Shown here: positions 17,368 through 28,967 of the stretch, one piece after another
Numbering within the stretch: position 1 is the stretch's first letter
How the letters are laid out: each line of letters starts with the position of its first letter
Assembly (NCBI GenBank): GCA_029432795.1
Contig: JARNMJ010000015.1
Coordinates: 1 to 64,000, forward strand
Source of the DNA: Pontiellaceae bacterium B12219
Lineage (GTDB): Bacteria; Verrucomicrobiota; Kiritimatiellia; Kiritimatiellales; Pontiellaceae
DNA length: 64,000 nucleotides
Reading direction: 5' to 3'
The notes under the pieces: model-generated
Told to the model about the DNA's origin: nothing
Databases searched by the model: none
The model's input: the letters and a program-made list of their open reading frames with translations, nothing else
Translations under genes and position numbers: made by a program

Positions 17368-18339
17368 ATGAATGAACAGGAAATAAAAAATAATCGTGAC
17401 GCGCTTCCGTTTGAGAAGCCGCATAACTATGACCTTAAAATTGCAACTGCGCGATTGCGTGGAAGCGCTTTGCGGGTTCGGGCAGGCATTCGCCTGCATG
17501 AAGTTGAACTGCTGCCGGATTCGGCGTGCCGGATCCCGGTATCCTATGCCCACGATGCTGTCTGGTTCGGGTATATTCGGCGGGGGGAGCAATCCATCCA
17601 TCTTCCGGACCTTGGAAGAAAAACCGTAGGTTCGGGAGGCTGGTTCATCGGTCGAATGGATGAAATGGTGGTGCTGACGGAAAAGGAAGGCGATGTTGCC
17701 TTGATGGCCTTTTCGTTTTGTCCGCACATCATGAAATCGTTGCTGTCGATGTGTGCGGTGGATGTGGCCGATGCCTTGCACTGTTTTGCCTGCAGGAATC
17801 AGCAAAAACCGACGTTGATACATGGAGACGCTTCGCCGCGTTTGCAGTGGCTTTCCGATCAGATTTCCATTGCAACCGGAAGTGAGCCGGGTAATCGGCT
17901 CGATCTGGAAGCGCGGTGTCTGGAATGGATCAGCGAGTTGTTTAAACAGCCTTCGCTGCTTTCGATCGACGCAAAGGAGTTCGGCTGCTCGAATTATGAT
18001 GTGCAGACGCTGCGCGATGTGGCCCGCTATCTGGAAGAACATTTGGCGGAAGAGCATTCGCTGGCGGATCTGTGCCGCCGTTTTTTCATCAACGAATTCA
18101 AGCTGAAGCGTAACTTTAAAGCGCTGTTCGGCAAAACTGTTTTCGGCTATTTGCGGGATCTGCGTTTTCAACACGCGGAGCAGCTGCTGAAGACCGCCGA
18201 CCTGTCAGTGCTCGAAATTGCAAATGAAGTGGGCTACAGCAATCCCAGCCATTTTTCACGCGGATTTCAGGAACGGTACGGTGTTCTTCCGAAAGCATTC
18301 AGACGGATGCACCAGGAACAATTAAAACAACTTAAATAG
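17368..18339 (+). CDS. PchR-like AraC-family regulator
   Basis: 323 aa. The C-terminal ~100 residues are a double helix-turn-helix AraC domain, with INEFKLKRNFKALFGKTVFG and YSNPSHFSRGFQERYGVLPKAF. The NEFKLK...LFG.TVFGYL pattern is typical of PchR/YbtA-type regulators that sense iron chelates. The N-terminal ~200 residues are the less conserved ligand-binding part. It stands at the head of the flavodoxin-DUF2023-radical SAM genes (15-base gap to flavodoxin) and opposite the TonB operon. It is therefore a good candidate for controlling both in response to heme or iron; that link is inferred from position. Confidence 0.88.
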   Translation: MNEQEIKNNRDALPFEKPHNYDLKIATARLRGSALRVRAGIRLHEVELLPDSACRIPVSYAHDAVWFGYIRRGEQSIHLPDLGRKTVGSGGWFIGRMDEMVVLTEKEGDVALMAFSFCPHIMKSLLSMCAVDVADALHCFACRNQQKPTLIHGDASPRLQWLSDQISIATGSEPGNRLDLEARCLEWISELFKQPSLLSIDAKEFGCSNYDVQTLRDVARYLEEHLAEEHSLADLCRRFFINEFKLKRNFKALFGKTVFGYLRDLRFQHAEQLLKTADLSVLEIANEVGYSNPSHFSRGFQERYGVLPKAFRRMHQEQLKQLK

Positions 18340-18354
18340 GGTAGGGGAACGAAG

Positions 18355-18861
18355 ATGAAGGAAATGAAAACAGTCGTTATTTACGGAAGTACAACAGGAA
18401 CAACGGAAGCGGTGGCGCAGGATGTGGCTGGAGAATTAGGGGCTGTTGCGATCGCTGCAGCGGATGCCGATGCGATGGCGCTTGATGGATGCAACTTCCT
18501 GGTGCTGGGTGCATCAATGTGGGGGATGGGTGATTTGCAGGATGATATGGCGGATTTTATTTCCCGTTTTGAATCGATGGATGTGACGGCGACCTGCGGT
18601 GCCGTTTTCGGTCTGGGCGATCAGGTTGGATTCAGTGACAGCTTTGTGGACGGCATCGCAGATATGGCTGGCGCGCTGGCAGGCAAAGGGCTCAACCTTG
18701 TGGGGGACTGGCCGGCGGATGGCTATGCCTTTTCAGCATCACGTGCGCAGGACGGAACACACTTTTCGGGGCTGGCGCTGGATCAGGATAACGAACCGGA
18801 AAAAACGGCTGACCGGATTGTTGCGTGGGTTCTGCAATTAAAGAAAGAGGTGCAATGGTGA
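18355..18861 (+). CDS. fldA: Long-chain flavodoxin
   Basis: 168 aa. The FMN phosphate loop YGSTTGTTEAVA lies at residues 10-21. ASMWGMGDLQDD and FGLGDQVGFSDSF supply the isoalloxazine loops, with Trp in the first and Asp/Ser in place of the usual Tyr in the second. The HFSGLALDQDNEPEKT segment is the insertion that marks long-chain flavodoxins. Role: low-potential one-electron carrier, here probably the donor for the radical SAM heme-degrading enzyme two genes downstream. The DUF2023 start codon overlaps its 3' end. Confidence 0.93.
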   Translation: MKEMKTVVIYGSTTGTTEAVAQDVAGELGAVAIAAADADAMALDGCNFLVLGASMWGMGDLQDDMADFISRFESMDVTATCGAVFGLGDQVGFSDSFVDGIADMAGALAGKGLNLVGDWPADGYAFSASRAQDGTHFSGLALDQDNEPEKTADRIVAWVLQLKKEVQW

Positions 18862-19217
18862 GCATGCAGGTTTTTGGTCATCACGTTTATGAATACCGCA
18901 AAGGGCTGCGTAATCTGGTGCTGCACACGATCGCCGGAGAAGAGCTCGATGCGGCCATCAATCGCCTGAAGATTGCGGAAATTGATTACGAAATCTATCC
19001 GGTTAAAGCGAGTGGCCGGATGAATATTTTTTTCGGAGCAAAAGAGAGCGTGAATTGTATCCGTGCGATTGGGAAAGACGATCTGAATGCATATACACCG
19101 GAAGAGGATTTTATGCTGGGTACGATGCTGGGCTACGACCGGCGTCAGCAGTGTGAACGGTATTTGGAGCAACGTGTCCGCTGGGAAAAACGGCAGGCTG
19201 TGCTTAAGGAAGGTTGA
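18855..19217 (+). CDS. DUF2023 protein, flavodoxin-linked
   Basis: 120 aa from the ATG at 18855, which overlaps the flavodoxin stop and has a GAGG ribosome site just upstream. Features: MQVFGHHVYEYRKGLRNLVL, then INRLKIAEIDYEIYPV, FFGAKESVN and EEDFMLGTMLGYDRRQQCERY. This is the small DUF2023 family that frequently sits beside flavodoxin genes; its biochemical role is unknown. Here it is coupled by overlap both to flavodoxin and to the radical SAM gene (TGATG), so the three proteins are probably made in fixed ratio and may form one electron-transfer unit (inference). Confidence 0.85.
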   Translation: MVSMQVFGHHVYEYRKGLRNLVLHTIAGEELDAAINRLKIAEIDYEIYPVKASGRMNIFFGAKESVNCIRAIGKDDLNAYTPEEDFMLGTMLGYDRRQQCERYLEQRVRWEKRQAVLKEG

Positions 19218-20704
19218 TGATGCTCTGGACTGACGAAGCGGAAGAATTGCTCGGTGCGGCTCCGGCATTTGTTCGTAAGCAAATACGGGAAAAAGCAGAA
19301 ATCCGGGCCCGGCAGGAACGGCGTAAGGAAATCGACGCGGGATTAATTAAGTCGATGCAAACCGGCGGCGGGCATCCGGGAAAACGCGATCCGGATCCCC
19401 GAATTACATCGGATCCCATTCATGAAGCCTTCGACCGAAAGTATGGGGTGCATGCCAATATGACGGGGGGCGATGCTTTGGCGGGCGATCCTGAAAAACA
19501 CTTTTTCCAGACCTTGGAAAAAACGATTCGTCCGGATGTCTCGACCATGGCGTATTTTCATATTCCGTTTTGCTGCACCCGTTGTTTGTTCTGCGGCTTT
19601 TATTCAGAAACAACGGAGCCGGGAGCGATTGCGAGTTATTCGGAAGCTTTGGCAAAGGATATTGTTCTCACCGGTTCCAGGCTTCGGGAAACGGGGCGGA
19701 AACTGGGTGCTGTTTATTTCGGGGGCGGCACTCCGACGGATCTTAAAGCCGAAGAATTGGAACTGCTGGTTCAAACGGTACGGCGCGAGTTCCCGCTGGA
19801 GCCGGATTGTGAGATTACCGTGGAAGGCCGGCTTTTTGATTTTGATGATGAAAAGGTGAAGGCGGTTTTAAATGCCGGAGCCAATCGCTTTTCATTCGGG
19901 GTCCAGAGTTTTGACACCAAAATCCGCCGGAGCATGGGGCGGATATTGAGCCGTGAAGATTTGATTGAACGCCTTAACCGGATTGTCATGCTAGGCGATT
20001 CCTATGATGCCGCCGTGGTGATTGACCTGATTTACGGTCTGCCGGGGCAGAGCGCACAGGAATGGATTGAAAGTATTGATTGCGGAGTGAATGAAACGGA
20101 AATTCATGGGTTGGACCTTTATCAAATCAATCTGCTGCCCGCCACGCCGCTGGCTGAAAAACTGGACTTTCTTCCTCCGATGGCTGACCTGAAACAGCAG
20201 GCCGATCTTTTTATGGCAGGGCGCCAGCGTATGATGAAACATGGGTTTGATCGCCTGTCGATTGCGCATTGGGGCCGCGATGCCCGCGAACGAAACCGGT
20301 ACAACCTTTGGAATAAGCTGAATGTTGATTGTGTTCCGATGGGGGCCGGCGCGGGAGGGCGGTGGGGTGGAACCCGATTTTTCCAGCAGAGCGATGTGCA
20401 CCGTTTCGGCCAGGTGATTTCGGAGGGTGGAAAGCCCCTGGTTTCGGCTGCTTCCGAGCCCTTCTGTGCCGCCTTGATTGCGGCGGCGGTCGGGCAGATT
20501 GAACAAGGTGAAATTGATGTGGAAGCCTTGGAGCGTGTTGCCGAAAAACCAGTACGGGATCATTTAAGGCCGATGCTCAGTCTTTGGGAGTCTGCCGGTC
20601 TGCTTCAGGCCGGAAAACCCTGTCGCCTGACGCCGGCCGGTGAATTCTGGAGCGTGAATCTTCAATATTTATTCAGTCATAAACTGAAAGAGATCTGCGC
20701 CTGA
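19217..20704 (+). CDS. HutW/ChuW-like radical SAM heme-degradation enzyme with N-terminal PCP_red-like segment
   Basis: 495 aa, HemN-like radical SAM family. The cluster motif HIPFCCTRCLFCGFY has the CxxxCxxC cysteines at 119, 123 and 126, and YFGGGTPTDL is the SAM-binding glycine motif. The C-terminal half has the HemN-type winged-helix tail. Family members (ChuW, HutW, HmuW) open heme anaerobically by methyl transfer to give anaerobilin and free iron; the heme locus around it supports that role rather than coproporphyrinogen oxidation. Residues 1-45 (WTDEAEELLGAAPAFVRKQI, then R.KAEIRARQE) resemble the PCP_red domain of dark-operative protochlorophyllide reductase subunits, an unusual addition. 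Start chosen at the TGATG overlap, with AAGGA 6 bases upstream; ATG 19220 is possible. Confidence 0.87.
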   Translation: MMLWTDEAEELLGAAPAFVRKQIREKAEIRARQERRKEIDAGLIKSMQTGGGHPGKRDPDPRITSDPIHEAFDRKYGVHANMTGGDALAGDPEKHFFQTLEKTIRPDVSTMAYFHIPFCCTRCLFCGFYSETTEPGAIASYSEALAKDIVLTGSRLRETGRKLGAVYFGGGTPTDLKAEELELLVQTVRREFPLEPDCEITVEGRLFDFDDEKVKAVLNAGANRFSFGVQSFDTKIRRSMGRILSREDLIERLNRIVMLGDSYDAAVVIDLIYGLPGQSAQEWIESIDCGVNETEIHGLDLYQINLLPATPLAEKLDFLPPMADLKQQADLFMAGRQRMMKHGFDRLSIAHWGRDARERNRYNLWNKLNVDCVPMGAGAGGRWGGTRFFQQSDVHRFGQVISEGGKPLVSAASEPFCAALIAAAVGQIEQGEIDVEALERVAEKPVRDHLRPMLSLWESAGLLQAGKPCRLTPAGEFWSVNLQYLFSHKLKEICA

Positions 20705-21050: not shown

Positions 21051-21740
21051 ATGAAAGTGAAAATGACGATTGCGAGTGCAGCTCTTCTGATTGCGGCGGG
21101 TACACAGGCATCCATAACAGATTTCGGACTGGGTGGAAATGTGAGTTACGACGGTTGGGATAATCTCACGGGAACTGAAAATCCAGGCGTTGGAAGTTAT
21201 CCGGGGGCGGCGGCCTGGCCTTTTGCTATCGGCTCAATGGAGACGGGCTCGGGCGATGCGGCATTAATGAAGGAGTCCGGAACGGGATATCCGGGAAGTG
21301 CGGGCATTTATTCCTCTGCCGGCGGAGTGTTCTCTATTTCCGATTCGACCGCGCTGGCCAATGTTCAAACCATTGTTTTGGCATTCGATTACGGGGCTGG
21401 AAGTACTCCCAGTTTTACCAGTGGGCCGTCGCTGACCCTTAATGGATCCACTGTGTTGGGGGCTGCGGACCGTACGCTGTCGCTGGGTTCGCGCGAGGAT
21501 ACCATTGCCGGAAATGAGGTGACCATTTTCACAGAAATCTACCAATGGGATCTTCAGGCGGAAGGCACCGTGAATTCATTTTCGGTGGAGTATGACGTGG
21601 GCGAGCACGCGCAGCAATATGCCATTCAGCTGGAGCAGAGCGATGTGTATTCCGCCGCAATTCCGGAACCGGCCACCATGGCACTGTTCGGTGGAGCCGG
21701 GCTGGCCCTGGCGTTTCTGCGCCGGATGAAAATGTATTAA
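21051..21740 (+). CDS. PEP-CTERM-anchored secreted protein
   Basis: 229 aa. Signal peptide (MKVKMTIASAALLIAAGTQA), a Gly/Ser/Thr-rich beta-type ectodomain without recognised motifs, and a C-terminal IPEPATMALFGGAGLALAFL followed by RRMK: the PEP motif, hydrophobic helix and basic tail of exosortase sorting signals. No exosortase is encoded here. The position directly before another secreted protein and the TonB receptor, between a heme-degradation unit and heme transport genes, makes a surface role in heme capture possible. That is inference; no heme-binding motif is evident. Confidence 0.85.
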   Translation: MKVKMTIASAALLIAAGTQASITDFGLGGNVSYDGWDNLTGTENPGVGSYPGAAAWPFAIGSMETGSGDAALMKESGTGYPGSAGIYSSAGGVFSISDSTALANVQTIVLAFDYGAGSTPSFTSGPSLTLNGSTVLGAADRTLSLGSREDTIAGNEVTIFTEIYQWDLQAEGTVNSFSVEYDVGEHAQQYAIQLEQSDVYSAAIPEPATMALFGGAGLALAFLRRMKMY

Positions 21741-21776
21741 TTTTTCTGCGCCGAAACGAATGAAGGGAGAAGCTAA

Positions 21777-22607
21777 ATGAAATCATTAATGACCTTATGC
21801 ATCATGCTGGCCGGCGTTTCGTCCTCGCTGTTACCGGCAGGCGTTTCGGCGCAGTCTTTTATGGAGCCTGGGTATAGCGGGATCACCCAGTTTGCCCAGT
21901 GGTCCACATTTGTTTATGCCACGACAAATTCGGGAATCAATACACCGCAGTGGGAGCTGGGTGCTCCTCAGTTGGAATTAAAACAGTTTAATCCGGCGAT
22001 TATTTCGGGCGGTGGAAATATCTACAGTTATTCTTCGGATATGTCGTTTGAATTGACGGGCTCATCGACCACGAATCTCAGCAGGATTTGTCTGCAGCTG
22101 TTCACGTGGGGCGAAGCCGAGGCGTTGTCGAATGAAACGGTTCGGTTGGTTCTGGACAGCGGTGTTGAACTGGCTCCGACCATTTCAACGAACTTCTACC
22201 ATTGGGTTGATGATCAGGGTGCATACGGGGCGTATCACACCTTGGGGTATAAACTGGAATGGGAGCTGGGCGGCAACGTCGTAACCAACTACGCCATCCG
22301 TTTTGAAACACGTATTCATTCCAGTTTGAATGAGCTGCGGCTGGATACCGAAGCGGGGCCGGTTGGATTACCAGCACCCGAGGCTCCGGTGGTATCGCTG
22401 GACTTCAGCGGGACGGATCCCGTCGTATGTTTCTCCGGCGAACCCGGTGTGTTTTATCAGCTTCGCAGTTCGGAATCGCTCACCAATGCCCTTTCGAACT
22501 GGTCGATTGTTGCCGGCCCTGTTCCGGGAGATGGCAGCGATTGCATGATGACGAATGTTACGGTGAAACCGGCGGCATTCTATGTTGTCGAGGCCTGGCG
22601 GGAGTAA
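21777..22607 (+). CDS. Secreted protein of unknown function beside the heme receptor
   Basis: 276 aa. Signal peptide ending near PAGVSAQ, then a beta-rich ectodomain (aromatic and Asn/Thr-rich). The C-terminal module (PVVCFSGEPGVFYQLRSSES, then LTNALSNWSIVAGPVPGD) is related to the verrucomicrobial-type YxLExSTNLxxxxW modules at the ends of the glycosidase and sulfatases of this window. It lacks the PEP-CTERM anchor of the gene upstream (36-base gap). Its stop lies 4 bases before the preferred TTG start of the receptor, so it is very probably in the receptor operon. I do not recognise a specific family. Confidence 0.75.
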   Translation: MKSLMTLCIMLAGVSSSLLPAGVSAQSFMEPGYSGITQFAQWSTFVYATTNSGINTPQWELGAPQLELKQFNPAIISGGGNIYSYSSDMSFELTGSSTTNLSRICLQLFTWGEAEALSNETVRLVLDSGVELAPTISTNFYHWVDDQGAYGAYHTLGYKLEWELGGNVVTNYAIRFETRIHSSLNELRLDTEAGPVGLPAPEAPVVSLDFSGTDPVVCFSGEPGVFYQLRSSESLTNALSNWSIVAGPVPGDGSDCMMTNVTVKPAAFYVVEAWRE

Positions 22608-22611
22608 ACTG

Positions 22612-24840
22612 TTGGGGCGACCGTATTCCATACTAATGTATTTAATCTGGGGCAGCTGTTTTGCGGGATATGCGCAGCAGTCCGCTGATGAGGTTCAGAC
22701 GGAGAAAAATGCTCCGCCTGAACTCGGTGTTACGGAAGTGACGGGTTCCGGTCAGCAGGATCGGAATGTTTCGCGCGTCCCGGCATCGCTGGTCAGCATG
22801 GATTTTGATGGAATGAAAGGCGATCAGGTAACCGATGCCGCTGATGTGGTGCGTTATGAACCGGGGGTGTCGATCCCGTTTGATATTGCGGGTGCCGATC
22901 CGTTTGTGCCGTATGGTAATAATGGGTTTTCCAGCTATCGGATTCGCGGTGTGGGCGGCAATCGACTGCTGTTGACGGTGGATGGAATTCGGCAACCGCC
23001 GGAGTTTGACCAAGCCGGAGGAATGGGCCGCACTTTTTTTGATCCGCGGGTTTACGGCGGAGTTGAAATTCTGAAAGGAACGGGGTCGGCCCGGTTCGGC
23101 AGTGAAGCAATCGGAGGGGCAATCGGGTTCCGGAGCAAGTCGCTGACCGACGAGCTGGAATATTCGCCGCGCCCCTGGCTGTTGAAGGGAAGCTCGACCT
23201 ACAAAACCGCGGACCAAAGTGTGAATGGTCTTGTGAATGCGGGTATTCGGGCGGGTAACTTTTATCTGACCGCCACCGATTCCTACACAACCGGGCACGA
23301 AATTGAAAATGCCAAAGGGGAGGTGGATGCCAATCCGCTGGATTTTACGCAGAACCATTTTCTGACGACGCTGTCCTGGATTCCAAGCGAGGAAAATCGG
23401 CTGTGGATGACCGGGGAACATTTTGTTTATGACGGGGCATCGCGACTTAAAAGTTCCGAAATTAATGATATCTATTTTGTGGGAACCGCAAACACGAATG
23501 AACGCTCCCGGATCAGTCTGGACTATTTAAACACACCGGATGCCGGTTGGTGGGAAAGCCTTTCAGGCAAGGTATATGTCCAGCATTCGGAAAACAACAG
23601 TCGGAACCAACGCAACGCATCCTGGATTGATCCGCCTCCGCTGCCGGTTTTTGATCCGGTCACGAACACGTTGGACCGGACGGACCGCATTGGCTTTGAG
23701 TACGCCTCCGTTGGAGGCATTCTTGCTGTTCAGCATTGGTTTGATACGGGGGCCTTCGAACATAATCTGAATTACGGGTTGGAACTTGGATATGAGCATG
23801 GCGAAAATTCATTTGATCGTGAGATCATTCAGAATGGAAGTTCAATTCCAACCGCTGCACCAACGGCTTTTGATGCGTCCGGGTTATACCGGATAGAACC
23901 CTATATTGAAGATTTCATCACACGTGGACGATGGAATGTCATCGGCGGGGTTCGGATTACGGATTATTCGATCCTGCCGGGCAACGATCCCGATTATCTG
24001 GCTTCGACCGGAGGCGATGTTAAACCGGATTATCATAACCTGTCATTTTCACCCAGCGCATCGGTGGATTATCAGTTGCTGACCAGCCTGCTGCTGTGGG
24101 GACGGTATGCACATGGTGTACGAAATCCTTCGCTGGAAGATTATGTGGGTTATTTCGATCATGGTCTCGGATTTTACCGGGTGCCGAACCCGGATCTGGA
24201 AGCGGAATCCAGTGATGCGTTTGAATTGGGCGTGCGGGTGGATCAACCGAAATTTTCGGTGAACGCATCGGCTTTTTATACCTTTTACAGTGGTTTTATT
24301 GAGGTGCGCGAAACCGGAAAAACGGATGCGACCGGACAGCTGGAAACCATGCTGCAGAATGTAGGCGATGTAGACATTTACGGCACAGAGCTGGGATTGG
24401 ATTTCCGGTTCGGCTCCTGGTGGGATGTACTGGATGGTTTTTCGGCCGGCACCAAGCTGATTTATTATGAAGGTGTAAACCGGACGGAAGACGATGTGGT
24501 CGATTCGGTGGATCCGTTTGAAGCGGTGGTTTATCTGGGCTACGACCATGTGTCCGGAAAATGGGGAACACGGATCACGGGCATTTACCGCGCTAAAAAA
24601 GAAGAGGTTTCCATGGATTGGAATGCCTTCATTCCGCCCGCCTCGTTTGTGCTCGACTGGACCGGCTACTGGAACCTCACAAAACGCATTTCGCTGGAAG
24701 CAACCGTACGTAATTTAACCGATCGGAAATATTGGCTGTGGCCGAATGCGGGACGCGGCGACCATAATTTTAATGAAAATCCGGAGCTGGCGGTTCAGCC
24801 CGGGATTAACGGGATGATCTCGCTGAATATTTCGCTTTAA
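22612..24840 (+). CDS. TonB-dependent heme/hemoglobin receptor
   Basis: 742 aa outer-membrane receptor. The plug domain is at residues about 45-170 (YRIRGVGGNRLLLTVDGIRQ, then GVEILKGTGSARFGSEAIGG); a 22-strand barrel follows to the C-terminus, which ends in ISL. NPDLEAESSDAFELGV and the nearby VRNPS and FDH resemble the NPNL/FRAP/His region of heme receptors. A TTG start at 22612 is preferred: GGGAG lies 7 bases upstream and it yields a clean signal peptide (MGRPYSILMYLIWGSCFAGYA). The ATG at 22582 would overlap the previous gene and add a charged leader. It would bring heme into the periplasm using the TonB2-type system; an Rrf2 regulator and heme transporter genes follow. Confidence 0.88.
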   Translation: MGRPYSILMYLIWGSCFAGYAQQSADEVQTEKNAPPELGVTEVTGSGQQDRNVSRVPASLVSMDFDGMKGDQVTDAADVVRYEPGVSIPFDIAGADPFVPYGNNGFSSYRIRGVGGNRLLLTVDGIRQPPEFDQAGGMGRTFFDPRVYGGVEILKGTGSARFGSEAIGGAIGFRSKSLTDELEYSPRPWLLKGSSTYKTADQSVNGLVNAGIRAGNFYLTATDSYTTGHEIENAKGEVDANPLDFTQNHFLTTLSWIPSEENRLWMTGEHFVYDGASRLKSSEINDIYFVGTANTNERSRISLDYLNTPDAGWWESLSGKVYVQHSENNSRNQRNASWIDPPPLPVFDPVTNTLDRTDRIGFEYASVGGILAVQHWFDTGAFEHNLNYGLELGYEHGENSFDREIIQNGSSIPTAAPTAFDASGLYRIEPYIEDFITRGRWNVIGGVRITDYSILPGNDPDYLASTGGDVKPDYHNLSFSPSASVDYQLLTSLLLWGRYAHGVRNPSLEDYVGYFDHGLGFYRVPNPDLEAESSDAFELGVRVDQPKFSVNASAFYTFYSGFIEVRETGKTDATGQLETMLQNVGDVDIYGTELGLDFRFGSWWDVLDGFSAGTKLIYYEGVNRTEDDVVDSVDPFEAVVYLGYDHVSGKWGTRITGIYRAKKEEVSMDWNAFIPPASFVLDWTGYWNLTKRISLEATVRNLTDRKYWLWPNAGRGDHNFNENPELAVQPGINGMISLNISL

Positions 24841-24850
24841 GGAACGTGCA

Positions 24851-25288
24851 ATGATGGTGTCAAAAAAAGGATTCTACGCCGGACGGGTCATGCTGTGCAT
24901 TGCCCGGCGGCCGTCTTCGGAACTGATCTCAAAAACAGAGATTGCAAAAGAGGCGGAAATTACATCGACCTATATCTGCCGGATTCTCTCTTTGCTTAAA
25001 AATGCCGGGCTCGTGCTGGGCCAAAGAGGAATTTACGGAGGGTATCGACTCGCCCGTCTTGCCGGGGATATCACGATGTATGACATTATTATTGCCGCAG
25101 AAGGAAAACTCGATGTGGTGGGGCCTCTCGATCACTGCAGCCGCTGTGCCCAGCCATGCATGAGGAAACTGTGGTGTGGAGCCAGTAGAATCTTACGGGA
25201 TTATTATTCGAGCATAACGCTCGATCAGCTCCTTCAGGAGCAGAGCGTCTTAAGAGACGAAGAATACCCTTCATTTAAAACACTGTAA
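24851..25288 (+). CDS. Rrf2-family regulator with a cysteine cluster
   Basis: 145 aa. Winged-helix N-terminus (TEIAKEAEITSTYICRILSL, then GLVLGQRGIYGGYRLAR) typical of Rrf2/IscR/NsrR. Cysteines at 96, 99, 103 and 109 (HCSRCAQPCMRKLWC) sit where these proteins bind a [2Fe-2S] or [4Fe-4S] cluster. AAGGA 6 bases before the ATG overlaps the receptor stop region, so it is in the receptor operon. It likely adjusts the heme genes to Fe-S status, redox or NO; the exact signal cannot be read from sequence. Confidence 0.9.
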   Translation: MMVSKKGFYAGRVMLCIARRPSSELISKTEIAKEAEITSTYICRILSLLKNAGLVLGQRGIYGGYRLARLAGDITMYDIIIAAEGKLDVVGPLDHCSRCAQPCMRKLWCGASRILRDYYSSITLDQLLQEQSVLRDEEYPSFKTL

Positions 25289-25308: not shown

Positions 25309-26385
25309 ATGAACCAGATAAAAACAAACGAAGCCGCAGTTGCATTGCGGGAAAAATACAGGCAGTTGATCAAAGAAAATCCCATGCGTATTCGTAACGC
25401 TGCGGATGTACTCGGCGTATCCGAAGGTCAGATCGTGGCGAGCCGGGTGGGCGAAGGTGTGGTACGCCTGAAGGATGAACCGCAGGAGATTCTCGAACAG
25501 ATTGAAGGCTTGGGCGAGGTGATGGCGCTGACCCGGAATGAGGATTGTGTGCACGAACGCAAGGGGGTGTATTCAAATCACTCTTTCTCAAAACACGGCC
25601 CGATGGCCATGGGGCTGTTTGTGAATCCGGATATTGATCTGCGTCTTTTTATGAACCATTGGAAAAGCTGTTTTGCCGTACAGGAAGAGTCGCACGGGCA
25701 TGTGCGGAAAAGCATTCAGTTTTTTGACCCGACCGGGACGGCGATTCATAAAATTTATCTGACCGGAAACTCGAACGAATTGGCATATACCCGGTTGCTG
25801 GCAGACTATGCAGCGGAGGAACAGCCGCTGTTTATTGAAGTGGAAGCGCCAAAACCGCCGTTGCCCTCGGTGGAAGATGACGCCGTGGATTGGGCTGAAT
25901 TCCGCGCCGCTTGGGAAGGGATGAAGGATACACACGACTTTTATCCGATGCTCCGGAAGTTTAAAGTGGATCGGCAGCAGGCCTTCCGCCATATCGGTGC
26001 CGACTACGCCTTTCCGGTCAGCAATGAAACCTCACGTAAAATTCTTGAGCTGGCTCGCGATCGGAAATGCGAAATCATGGTTTTTGTCGGCAATAAAGGC
26101 TGCATTCAGATTCACACCGGACCGGTTGAAAATCTGATGGAAAGAGACGGCTGGTTTAATGTGCTCGATCCCGTTTTTAATCTGCACCTGAAAGTGGGAT
26201 CCATTGCGAACACCTGGATTACCAAAAAGCCGACAACTGACGGGGTGGTGACGGCAGTGGAAGTATTTGATGCCGATGGCGAAATCATTGCGACGTTCTT
26301 CGGGAAGCGCAAACCGGGCATTCCGGAGCTGGAACTCTGGCGCGAAATTGTGGCGGAAATTCCGGCTGAAGGAGTGCACGCATGA
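25309..26385 (+). CDS. hemS: HemS/ChuS-type cytoplasmic heme-binding protein
   Basis: 358 aa, the duplicated two-lobe fold of HemS/ChuS/PhuS. The N-terminal NPMRIRNAADVLGVSEGQIV motif is characteristic. The second lobe contains DTHDFYPMLRKF, with His209 matching the axial heme ligand, and the C-terminal half has FVGNKGCIQIHTGPV. Members bind imported heme and deliver or degrade it; with a radical SAM degradase in the locus a trafficking role is likely. The last codons overlap hmuT by 4 bases. Confidence 0.92.
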   Translation: MNQIKTNEAAVALREKYRQLIKENPMRIRNAADVLGVSEGQIVASRVGEGVVRLKDEPQEILEQIEGLGEVMALTRNEDCVHERKGVYSNHSFSKHGPMAMGLFVNPDIDLRLFMNHWKSCFAVQEESHGHVRKSIQFFDPTGTAIHKIYLTGNSNELAYTRLLADYAAEEQPLFIEVEAPKPPLPSVEDDAVDWAEFRAAWEGMKDTHDFYPMLRKFKVDRQQAFRHIGADYAFPVSNETSRKILELARDRKCEIMVFVGNKGCIQIHTGPVENLMERDGWFNVLDPVFNLHLKVGSIANTWITKKPTTDGVVTAVEVFDADGEIIATFFGKRKPGIPELELWREIVAEIPAEGVHA

Positions 26386-27203
26386 AACGGCTGTTTCTAG
26401 GTGCGCTGGCACTGGCTGCCGGTGCGGCTCATGCTGCTCCAGAGCGGCTGGTGGCGGTTGGCGGTGCGGTGAATGAAATCATATATGCGCTGGGGGCGGA
26501 AGAGCTGCTCGTGGGCAATTGTGTGTCGAGCTATTATCCGCCGGAAGCGCTGAAACTTCCAAAGGTTGGATATCAGCGCATGCTGCCGGCCGAAGGCATA
26601 CTTTCGCTGAATCCGGATCTCGTGATTCTGACGGATAAAGCCGGTCCGCCGGCGGTGATCCAACAATTGGAATGTACAGGGGTGGACGTGCTCAAGGTGC
26701 CGGCGGCTGAATCGTTTGAGGGCGTTCTTGAAACCGTTCAGGTGATTGGGTCGCAGCTGGAGCGTACGGAGCAGGCGGAAGAATTGATCGCCCGCCTGAA
26801 AACTGAAAAAGCGATTTTGGATGCAGAACTGGAGCAGCAGGAGTCTGCTCCGAAAGTACTGTTCATTCTGACGCACGGCGGCGCGCCGAGTGTGGGCGGG
26901 GCCGGAACGGCAGCGGATGCCATGATTGCATTGTCCGGTGGCGAAAATGTGGCTACGGCTTTTAATGGATATAAACCGCTTTCGCCGGAAGAGCTGATTG
27001 AGCTGGCGCCGGAGTATGTGCTGAGTTCAAAAAGCGGAGTCGGCCCCGGAGGAAGTACAGAAGCCATTCTGAAAATTCCAGGGGTTGCGCTGACGCCGGC
27101 GGGTAAAAAGAATCAGATTATCATGATGGATTCATTGCTGTTGCTGGGTTTTGGACCGCGCACGGTAGAGGCTGCACTGCAGTTGCATAATGCTTATGAC
27201 TAA
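26382..27203 (+). CDS. hmuT: Heme ABC transporter periplasmic binding protein
   Basis: 273 aa, signal peptide (cleavage near AHA-APE), class III substrate-binding fold. Tyr64 in KVGYQRMLPAEGILSL corresponds to the heme-ligating tyrosine of ShuT/PhuT. Translationally coupled to hemS (ATGA) and overlapping hmuU. It captures heme released by the outer-membrane receptor for the HmuUV permease. Confidence 0.93.
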   Translation: MKRLFLGALALAAGAAHAAPERLVAVGGAVNEIIYALGAEELLVGNCVSSYYPPEALKLPKVGYQRMLPAEGILSLNPDLVILTDKAGPPAVIQQLECTGVDVLKVPAAESFEGVLETVQVIGSQLERTEQAEELIARLKTEKAILDAELEQQESAPKVLFILTHGGAPSVGGAGTAADAMIALSGGENVATAFNGYKPLSPEELIELAPEYVLSSKSGVGPGGSTEAILKIPGVALTPAGKKNQIIMMDSLLLLGFGPRTVEAALQLHNAYD

Positions 27204-28203
27204 ATCGGGCTCCAATATCCGATACCTGTTCGGTCTTGGCATCGTTCTGTTGGTGATGATGGGGATGGCGGTTTCAATTGGCGCCGTCTCCATTTCTCCA
27301 GCAGAATTTCTGAAGGGGAATCTCAGTGATGTGCAGCAGGCGGTGCTCTGGTCCATTCGGATTCCGCGTATGCTGCTGGGTGTGATTGTGGGTTCTGCAC
27401 TCGCCGTTTCCGGTGCGGCCATGCAGGGGCTGTTTCGTAATCCGCTGGCTGATCCCGGGCTGATTGGCATCACCAGCGGGGCGGCTCTGGCGGTCGGGAT
27501 TATGATTGTGCTGGTGAACCCCTCTTCCGGATTTCTGGGGACGTACGGATTAAGTGTGGCCGCTTTTGTCGGAGCGATTCTGACCTGTTTTGTCATCATG
27601 CGGTTTGCACGCGCATCGCAGTCGCTCTCTATCATGTATATGCTGCTCGCCGGTATTGCCGTGAATGCCATTGCGGCGGCGGCCACAGGATTCCTCACCT
27701 ATATCAGCGACGATCAGCAGTTGCGTACGCTGACCTTCTGGACGATGGGCAGTCTGGCCAGTGCACTTTGGCCGACGGTTTTGGTTGCGGCGAGCTGCGT
27801 GCTGCCCGGATTGGTTCTCATGATGCGCAATGCCCGGAACCTGAATATGCTGTTGCTCGGTGAGGAGGATGCCGGGCATCTCGGTGTGGACTGCGATAAA
27901 CTGAAAAATCGATTGGTTGTGGCCATTGCTTTGGCGGTGGGCGCAGGCGTGGCGGTGAGTGGATTTATTGGTTTTGTAGGATTGGTGGTGCCGCATCTGA
28001 TCCGTCTGTTCATCGGGCCGGATCACCGTATTCTTTTACCGGCATCGGCACTGCTCGGTGCCGCACTGCTTCTGGTGGCCGACACCATTTCCCGAACGGT
28101 GGTGGCTCCGGCGGAAATACCCGTGGGCATCATCACCAGTCTGATCGGCGGTCCGTTTTTCCTATGGCTGCTGATTCGACAGTATTCCGGGAGAGCCCAA
28201 TGA
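27190..28203 (+). CDS. hmuU: Heme ABC transporter permease (FecCD family)
   Basis: 337 aa with about nine to ten membrane helices. Family motifs: RIPRMLLGVIVGSALAVSGA, MQGLFRNPLADPGLIGITSG, and the cytoplasmic coupling helix region near GFVGLVVPHLIRLFIGPDHR. The ATG at 27190 overlaps hmuT by 14 bases; ATG 27196 is an alternative. It forms the inner-membrane channel with HmuV, whose start overlaps its stop by 4 bases. Confidence 0.94.
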   Translation: MLMTKSGSNIRYLFGLGIVLLVMMGMAVSIGAVSISPAEFLKGNLSDVQQAVLWSIRIPRMLLGVIVGSALAVSGAAMQGLFRNPLADPGLIGITSGAALAVGIMIVLVNPSSGFLGTYGLSVAAFVGAILTCFVIMRFARASQSLSIMYMLLAGIAVNAIAAAATGFLTYISDDQQLRTLTFWTMGSLASALWPTVLVAASCVLPGLVLMMRNARNLNMLLLGEEDAGHLGVDCDKLKNRLVVAIALAVGAGVAVSGFIGFVGLVVPHLIRLFIGPDHRILLPASALLGAALLLVADTISRTVVAPAEIPVGIITSLIGGPFFLWLLIRQYSGRAQ

Positions 28204-28967
28204 TTGAAGCGATTGATCTCGAGTTTTCGGTTCGAACTGAATTGATTTTAAAACCAACGAATCTGACGTTGCAGGGGGCCGGGATTACGGCCATTCTCGG
28301 GCCGAACGGTGCCGCAAAATCGACCTTGTTAAAGTGCCTCAGCGGAGCAAACAAGCCGACGGGCGGAACGGTTCGGTTCGATCAAAAAGAACTGTCGGCC
28401 TATTCTGCAAAAGCGTTGGCGCAACGGCGCGCCGTACTTTCGCAATCCACCGAAATTTCCTTTCCGTTCAAAGTGCATGAAGTAGTGATTATGGGCCGGA
28501 ATCCGCATTTGATCGGCCGGGAGTCGGAAGCGGATCATCGGATTGTCGAGCAGGCGCTGCAGTGTGTGGATGCATTGAATTTGATGAACCGCGAATTTTC
28601 AACGCTTTCCGGCGGGGAAAAACAGCGGGTCCAGTTGGCCCGTGTTTTTGCGCAGGTCTGGGAGCAGTCCGAATCGTTGGTCTTGTTGGATGAGCCCACT
28701 TCTGCGCTGGACCTACGCCATCAGAGTCAGATTCTGGGGTATGTGCAGCAACAGGTTGAACGGTTTCAAATGACCGTGCTGTGCATTCTGCACGATATCA
28801 ATTTGGCGGCGATGTATGCCGATCGAATTATCCTGATGAAAAACGGGGCAATTCAGTATCAGGGTTCAAAAGAGCGCGTGCTGACGGCCGAGCGGCTTGA
28901 GGACGTGTTTGAAACAAAAATCATGCACCACCGGCGTGAAAACCAGTCGCGTTTTTTTCTGGGTTAG
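28200..28967 (+). CDS. hmuV: Heme ABC transporter ATP-binding protein
   Basis: 255 aa from ATG 28200, which overlaps the hmuU stop (ATGA) and has GGGAGAG upstream; the frame is open 12 codons further. Walker A reads GPNGAAKST, with Ala instead of the usual Gly before Lys. The signature is LSGGEKQRVQLARVF, Walker B LVLLDEPTSALD, and the H-loop His lies in ILHDINLA. ATPase of the heme importer. Confidence 0.94.
   Translation: MIEAIDLEFSVRTELILKPTNLTLQGAGITAILGPNGAAKSTLLKCLSGANKPTGGTVRFDQKELSAYSAKALAQRRAVLSQSTEISFPFKVHEVVIMGRNPHLIGRESEADHRIVEQALQCVDALNLMNREFSTLSGGEKQRVQLARVFAQVWEQSESLVLLDEPTSALDLRHQSQILGYVQQQVERFQMTVLCILHDINLAAMYADRIILMKNGAIQYQGSKERVLTAERLEDVFETKIMHHRRENQSRFFLG

What the first reader, a model, noticed from the sequence alone, without database searches (positions are those of the whole stretch)
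19217..19360. PCP_red-like segment fused to a heme-degrading radical SAM enzyme
Residues 1-45 match the WTxEAExxLxxxPxFVRxxxR pattern of the small helical domain found at the C-terminus of BchB/ChlB, which acts on a chlorophyll precursor. Its presence ahead of a HutW/ChuW-type enzyme suggests a shared tetrapyrrole- or partner-binding use.
Basis: partly seen in the sequence, partly recalled or inferred. Interest (0 to 1): 0.6.

Follow-up and report, generated by a model that had tools for sequence, protein, structure and literature searches.

The report
Chlorophyll-enzyme domain on heme-degrading enzyme
A bacterium that does not make chlorophyll carries, at the front of its oxygen-free heme-breaking enzyme, a small helical domain best known from the tail of a chlorophyll-making enzyme, and the same pairing recurs in unrelated bacteria, which suggests a reusable module whose job is still untested.

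Summary
Residues 4-45 of the enzyme encoded at 19217-20704 match Pfam PF08369 (PCP_red) at E 2.6e-10, 40.6 bits against a cut-off of 32.5. The rest of the protein passes the NCBIfam HutW/ChuW cut-off. The domain folds confidently as three helices and superposes on the solved PCP_red domains 2KRU, 2L09 and ChlB residues 479-528 of 2YNM. The gene sits in a heme-uptake locus conserved in the genus. The genome has no other PF08369 match.

The fusion recurs in Desulfuromusa, three other genomes of its phylum and another family of the window's phylum; most HutW proteins lack it.

PCP_red turns out to be a mobile module: on BchB-like proteins, siroheme-type NIR_SIR proteins, AhbD/NirJ-like radical SAM enzymes and a heme-oxygenase-like protein, but also on CGGC, USP, MFS, DUF169 and flavin-reductase proteins. 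No column is conserved as His or Cys, so iron ligation is unlikely. Best reading: a tethered docking module, often but not only in tetrapyrrole chemistry. Function is inferred, not shown.

The parts
19217..20704 (+). HutW/ChuW-type radical SAM enzyme (anaerobic heme degradation) with an N-terminal PCP_red domain, 495 aa
   Evidence: TIGR04107 424.3 bits over cut-off 400; Radical_SAM PF04055; residues 66-492 align to HemN 1OLT at Z 33.8
19226..19351 (+). PCP_red domain, residues 4-45; three helices 6-13/14, 17-33, 41-49
   Evidence: PF08369 E 2.6e-10; AlphaFold2 domain model pLDDT 88.1; fold match 2KRU Z 8.7, 2L09 Z 8.3, 2YNM chain D residues 479-528 Z 6.7
19361..19396 (+). flexible linker between PCP_red and the HutW core, about residues 49-60
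   Evidence: lowest pLDDT of the model: 49-56 below 50, block 51-60 mean 52
19451..19453 (+). His79, invariant in 35 HutW proteins with or without PCP_red
   Evidence: alignment A2; role as heme contact is inference
19571..19594 (+). radical SAM cluster motif C119-x3-C123-x2-C126
   Evidence: invariant in alignment A2
18855..19217 (+). DUF2023 protein, overlaps HutW start (TGATG)
   Evidence: PF09633 E 1.5e-38; sequence
18355..18861 (+). long-chain flavodoxin
   Evidence: TIGR01752 148.8 bits over cut-off 146.75
17368..18339 (+). AraC-family regulator
   Evidence: PF12833 E 8.1e-23
21051..21740 (+). secreted PEP-CTERM protein, conserved in the locus
   Evidence: PF07589 E 2.6e-5; same position in three other genomes of the genus
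21777..22607 (+). secreted-looking protein without Pfam match, conserved in the locus
22582..24840 (+). TonB-dependent receptor of the heme/hemoglobin kind
   Evidence: Pfam Plug and barrel; best NCBIfam TIGR01786 302 bits, below its cut-off 323.75
24851..25288 (+). Rrf2 regulator
   Evidence: PF02082 E 3.1e-27
25309..26385 (+). HemS/ChuS-type heme-handling protein
   Evidence: PF05171 E 1.1e-78

Best explanation
The gene encodes an oxygen-independent heme-opening enzyme of the HutW/ChuW family that has gained, at its N-terminus and on a flexible linker, a PCP_red domain: a three-helix, non-catalytic module. Shown: the domain, its predicted fold, its conservation in frame under selection, its recurrence on HutW in several lineages, and its spread over many other proteins. 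Inferred: it works as a docking module that brings the enzyme to a partner, most likely the heme carrier or the flavodoxin encoded beside it, so that heme is handed over or electrons delivered without release. BchB would use the same module in a comparable way in its complex. It is not part of the radical chemistry itself, because most HutW proteins lack it.
For: PF08369 and HutW both over curated cut-offs. The domain model superposes on solved PCP_red domains; the HemN-like enzyme part starts only at residue 66, with a low-confidence linker between. HutW with and without the domain share the same core and invariant residues. The module sits on unrelated proteins, at the N- or C-terminus, sometimes in two or three copies, and on two different proteins encoded side by side (USP and radical SAM in L061, L099, L100), which is what an interaction module would show. 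Arg20 (92%) and Glu28 (97%) of helix 2 are conserved, with no column conserved as His or Cys. A flavodoxin lies near HutW in the window and in L038 and L132; in Fusobacterium a flavodoxin-family protein hands heme to HmuW (PMC10404700).
Against: No interaction was tested. Flavodoxin genes also stand next to HutW proteins without PCP_red (L040, L042, L043, L046, L047), so the domain is not needed for that partnership. No solved HutW/ChuW structure was found by sequence. What the domain touches in the DPOR complex could not be read here.
Confidence: 0.5

Rival explanations
1. PCP_red binds the tetrapyrrole itself, as a mobile lid or transfer site, through hydrophobic and arginine-propionate contacts rather than through an iron ligand.
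For: The domain recurs on BchB and BchB-like nitrogenase-type proteins, NIR_SIR proteins (siroheme-type fold), AhbD/NirJ2-like radical SAM enzymes, HutW and a heme-oxygenase-like protein. Conserved basic residues Arg20 and Lys/Arg24.
Against: Also on CGGC (22 of the loci read), USP, MFS, DUF169 and flavin-reductase proteins without known tetrapyrrole roles. The AhbD/NirJ2-like proteins stay below the NCBIfam cut-offs, so their substrate is unknown. No conserved His or Cys.
Confidence: 0.27
2. PCP_red is a generic structural or oligomerisation add-on, recruited to many proteins, with no role in heme handling.
For: Most HutW proteins lack it; the fold is simple and shared at Z about 7 with the small lid domain of AAA+ proteins; in one Desulfuromusa MAG an in-frame TAA interrupts the domain region.
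Against: Retained under purifying selection in Pontiellaceae; recurs on HutW in several separate places of the tree; residues conserved across contexts.
Confidence: 0.2
3. Chance resemblance or a wrongly called start.
For: Short segment; the Desulfuromusa kysingii copy falls below the Pfam cut-off (27.5 bits).
Against: Over cut-off, 41.8 bits against at most 13.6 in 20,000 shuffles, conserved in frame, matching fold.
Confidence: 0.01

Closest known systems
PCP_red domain (PF08369) at the C-terminus of BchB/ChlB of dark-operative protochlorophyllide reductase
   Same: Same family over the curated cut-off, same fold (2KRU, 2YNM chain D)
   Different: N-terminal, on a radical SAM heme-degrading enzyme; no nitrogenase-type part; the genome's four PF00148 proteins carry no PCP_red
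HutW/ChuW/HmuW anaerobilin synthase (TIGR04107)
   Same: Core over cut-off, C-x3-C-x2-C motif, heme-uptake locus
   Different: Carries an extra N-terminal domain and linker of about 60 residues that the Bacillota and Thauera HutW and most Desulfobacterota HutW read here do not have
HmuF/FldH of Fusobacterium nucleatum (flavodoxin family with helical heme-binding cap, PMC10404700)
   Same: A flavodoxin-family protein beside the heme-degrading enzyme; a helical add-on used in heme handling
   Different: There the helices are on the flavodoxin and supply a His ligand; here they are on HutW and no His is conserved. The window flavodoxin is an ordinary long-chain type by TIGR01752.

Membership tests
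PCP_red (PF08369) | score over Pfam gathering cut-off | tested here: met
   40.6 bits against 32.5
PCP_red (PF08369) | three-helix fold of the solved members | tested here: met
   predicted model: 2KRU Z 8.7, rmsd 1.5, 52 residues; 2L09 Z 8.3
HutW/ChuW (TIGR04107) | score over curated cut-off | tested here: met
   424.3 bits against 400
HutW/ChuW (TIGR04107) | radical SAM CxxxCxxC motif | tested here: met
   C119, C123, C126 invariant
HutW/ChuW (TIGR04107) | opens heme without oxygen to give anaerobilin and iron | not testable with these tools
   needs an enzyme assay
BchB/ChlB subunit of DPOR | nitrogenase-type Oxidored_nitro part and BchB equivalog score | tested here: not met
   no PF00148 in the protein; NF002789 23 bits against 509
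HmuF-type heme-binding flavodoxin (for the neighbour 18355-18861) | helical cap domain with heme-ligating His | not tested
   only family profiles run: TIGR01752 flavodoxin 148.8 bits over 146.75

The most novel reading that the evidence does not exclude
PCP_red is a general docking or hand-over module of anaerobic tetrapyrrole metabolism, reused on heme-degrading (HutW), heme-making-like (AhbD/NirJ-like), siroheme-type and nitrogenase-like proteins, including BchNB-like systems in genomes outside the known phototrophs, so that carrying PCP_red would predict unknown tetrapyrrole enzymes and their transporters.
Probability: 0.27. Interest if true: 0.72.

Novelty: new variant of a known kind. 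Interest (0 to 1): 0.47.

Why it matters
The role of the PCP_red domain is not described in any paper found here, although solved structures exist since 2010. A fusion to a soluble, assayable enzyme with a coloured substrate gives a direct way to test what the domain does. If it hands over heme or docks a partner, that would also guide work on the BchB tail and on the many unstudied PCP_red proteins of Desulfobacterota and Bacillota.

Tried and rejected
Heme ligation by the domain: rejected as the main idea, because no column is conserved as His or Cys in 87 distinct domains (the W and A columns there are partly fixed by how the segments were picked). A tie between PCP_red and the presence of a flavodoxin gene: rejected, as flavodoxins also adjoin HutW without PCP_red. 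Single origin of the fusion: not decided; the HutW tree needs at least five changes but well-supported branches force only one, and the closest relatives of the G170, G443 and G529 domains are not HutW domains, weak evidence because the domain is 45 residues. The fold match to AAA+ lid domains (Z about 7) is treated as a common arrangement. Papers: PF08369 and PCP_red gave nothing relevant; the DPOR structure paper is not held. Eight HutW loci of the window's phylum (L166, L168, L170, L171, L174-L177) were not read by the motif script. A first version of that script used a wrong motif and missed most loci.

Full report
What is there. The open frame 19217-20704 encodes 495 residues. Residues 4-45 match PF08369 PCP_red at E 2.6e-10, over the gathering cut-off, and residues 114-288 match Radical_SAM. 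The protein from residue 70 on passes the NCBIfam cut-off for the anaerobic heme-degrading methyltransferase ChuW/HutW. The match is not chance: a profile made only from PCP_red domains of other protein kinds scores 41.8 bits, and 20,000 shuffles reach 13.6 at most. The segment is kept in frame: between the window and its sister genome dN is 0.074 and dS 0.49.

Structure. With 35 HutW sequences AlphaFold2 gives mean pLDDT 91.8 and pTM 0.86; the domain is three helices, followed by a low-confidence linker at about 49-60. The domain folded alone (pLDDT 88.1) superposes on 2KRU (Chlorobium BchB PCP_red, Z 8.7), 2L09 (Nostoc Asr4154, Z 8.3) and ChlB residues 479-528 of the DPOR complex 2YNM (Z 6.7). 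The enzyme part aligns to HemN 1OLT over residues 66-492, Z 33.8, so PCP_red lies outside the HemN-like fold.

Locus. The order AraC, flavodoxin, DUF2023, HutW, two secreted-looking proteins, TonB receptor, HemS is conserved in three further genomes of the genus; the relatives with named records are Pontiellaceae. The Rrf2 gene between receptor and HemS was found in two of the three. Flavodoxin, DUF2023 and HutW genes overlap by a few bases. In Bacteroidetes, flavodoxin and DUF2023 genes are induced up to several hundred-fold by iron starvation (PMC10434189). A periplasmic binding protein, permease and ATPase follow at 26382-28967, judged from sequence only. The genome has no other PF08369 match, and its four Oxidored_nitro proteins therefore carry none, so there is no sign of a BchB.

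Distribution on HutW. All five HutW over the cut-off in families f1 and f2 carry the domain, while a HutW of the same class does not. A genome-contig scan found the fusion in Desulfuromusa kysingii at 51% identity; HutW of Acidaminococcus, Megasphaera, a Selenomonadaceae MAG and Thauera lack it. Of 297 sampled genomes of the Desulfuromusa phylum, 15 have HutW at E 1e-90, and four carry the domain (G369, G443, G529, G591); in the window's own phylum a further family (G170) has it. The copy of D. kysingii is weak (27.5 bits), and in a second Desulfuromusa MAG the region holds an in-frame TAA. In a tree of 47 HutW cores and outgroups the Pontiellaceae and Desulfuromusa proteins form one clade (100/100); the label needs five changes in all, with one origin not excluded.

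Distribution elsewhere. In the Desulfuromusa phylum 90 of 297 genomes have PCP_red, up to seven copies; in the Acidaminococcus phylum (Bacillota) 33 of 249. Reading the best-scoring and some chosen places (a biased sample) gave these partners: NIR_SIR 23, CGGC 22, radical SAM/SPASM of AhbD/NirJ2 likeness 13, HutW 9, BchB and nitrogenase-like six proteins, MFS 4, USP 4, a small Cys-rich protein 3, DUF169 2, flavin reductase 2, one protein with three PCP_red copies, a rubredoxin-like motif and a heme-oxygenase-like part, and three that stand alone or nearly so. Several of these kinds act on tetrapyrroles or are close relatives of enzymes that do; the CGGC, USP, MFS, DUF169 and flavin-reductase proteins have no known tetrapyrrole role. 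Whether tetrapyrrole enzymes are enriched was not tested statistically.

How it most likely works. The conserved residues are Trp4, Ala8, Pro16, Phe18, Arg20 and Glu28; no column is conserved as His or Cys. A non-catalytic helical module on a tether, on either end of unrelated proteins, on neighbouring genes, and absent from most HutW proteins, is most simply a docking module. For HutW the likely partners are the heme carrier and the electron or hydride donor of the locus. In Fusobacterium a flavodoxin-family protein hands heme to HmuW and then reduces the product (PMC10404700), and V. cholerae HutW can take electrons from NADPH through heme (PMC10035031), so hand-over and electron supply are real needs of this enzyme. 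That PCP_red meets them is inference. Direct tetrapyrrole binding remains the chief rival.

Verdict. The idea of a shared use is plausible but unproven, and the domain is much more widespread than a chlorophyll-linked reading suggests. The architecture is not described in the papers held here; public domain-architecture tables could not be consulted, so it may already be listed there.

Noticed in passing
L082 56-1786, 3541-4800, 4745-6511; L084 1904-3670; L088 3-1736: Nitrogenase-like proteins (PF00148) with one or two C-terminal PCP_red domains, in L082 beside a second PF00148 protein without it, in genomes of the Desulfuromusa phylum; PCP_red also occurs there on MFS, DUF169 and flavin-reductase proteins. 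Possibly an undescribed BchNB-like reductase system.
   Followed up: partly
L061, L099, L100: USP-PCP_red and radical SAM/SPASM-PCP_red proteins encoded side by side.
   Followed up: partly
L087 262-1812: One protein with three PCP_red domains, a rubredoxin-like motif and a heme-oxygenase-like (Haem_oxygenas_2) part.
   Followed up: no
L102-L130 (Bacillota): 22 PCP_red-CGGC proteins of about 170-200 residues in the sampled genomes; function unknown.
   Followed up: no
window 21051-22607: Two secreted-looking proteins (one PEP-CTERM) kept between HutW and the TonB receptor in four genomes; candidate hemophores.
   Followed up: partly
window 18855-19217: DUF2023 gene overlapping flavodoxin and HutW genes; the flavodoxin-DUF2023 pair is induced by iron starvation in Bacteroidetes (PMC10434189).
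   Followed up: partly
L038 8076-10267, L132 9935-12005, L133 2545-4640: CbiQ-type permease and double ABC ATPase (ECF-like transporter) near PCP_red-HutW in three genomes; a possible heme transporter.
   Followed up: no
window 19451-19453: His79 upstream of the radical SAM core is invariant in all 35 HutW proteins aligned; a candidate heme contact of the whole family.
   Followed up: partly
L039 6001-6103: In-frame TAA within the PCP_red region of a Desulfuromusa MAG HutW; decay or assembly error.
   Followed up: partly
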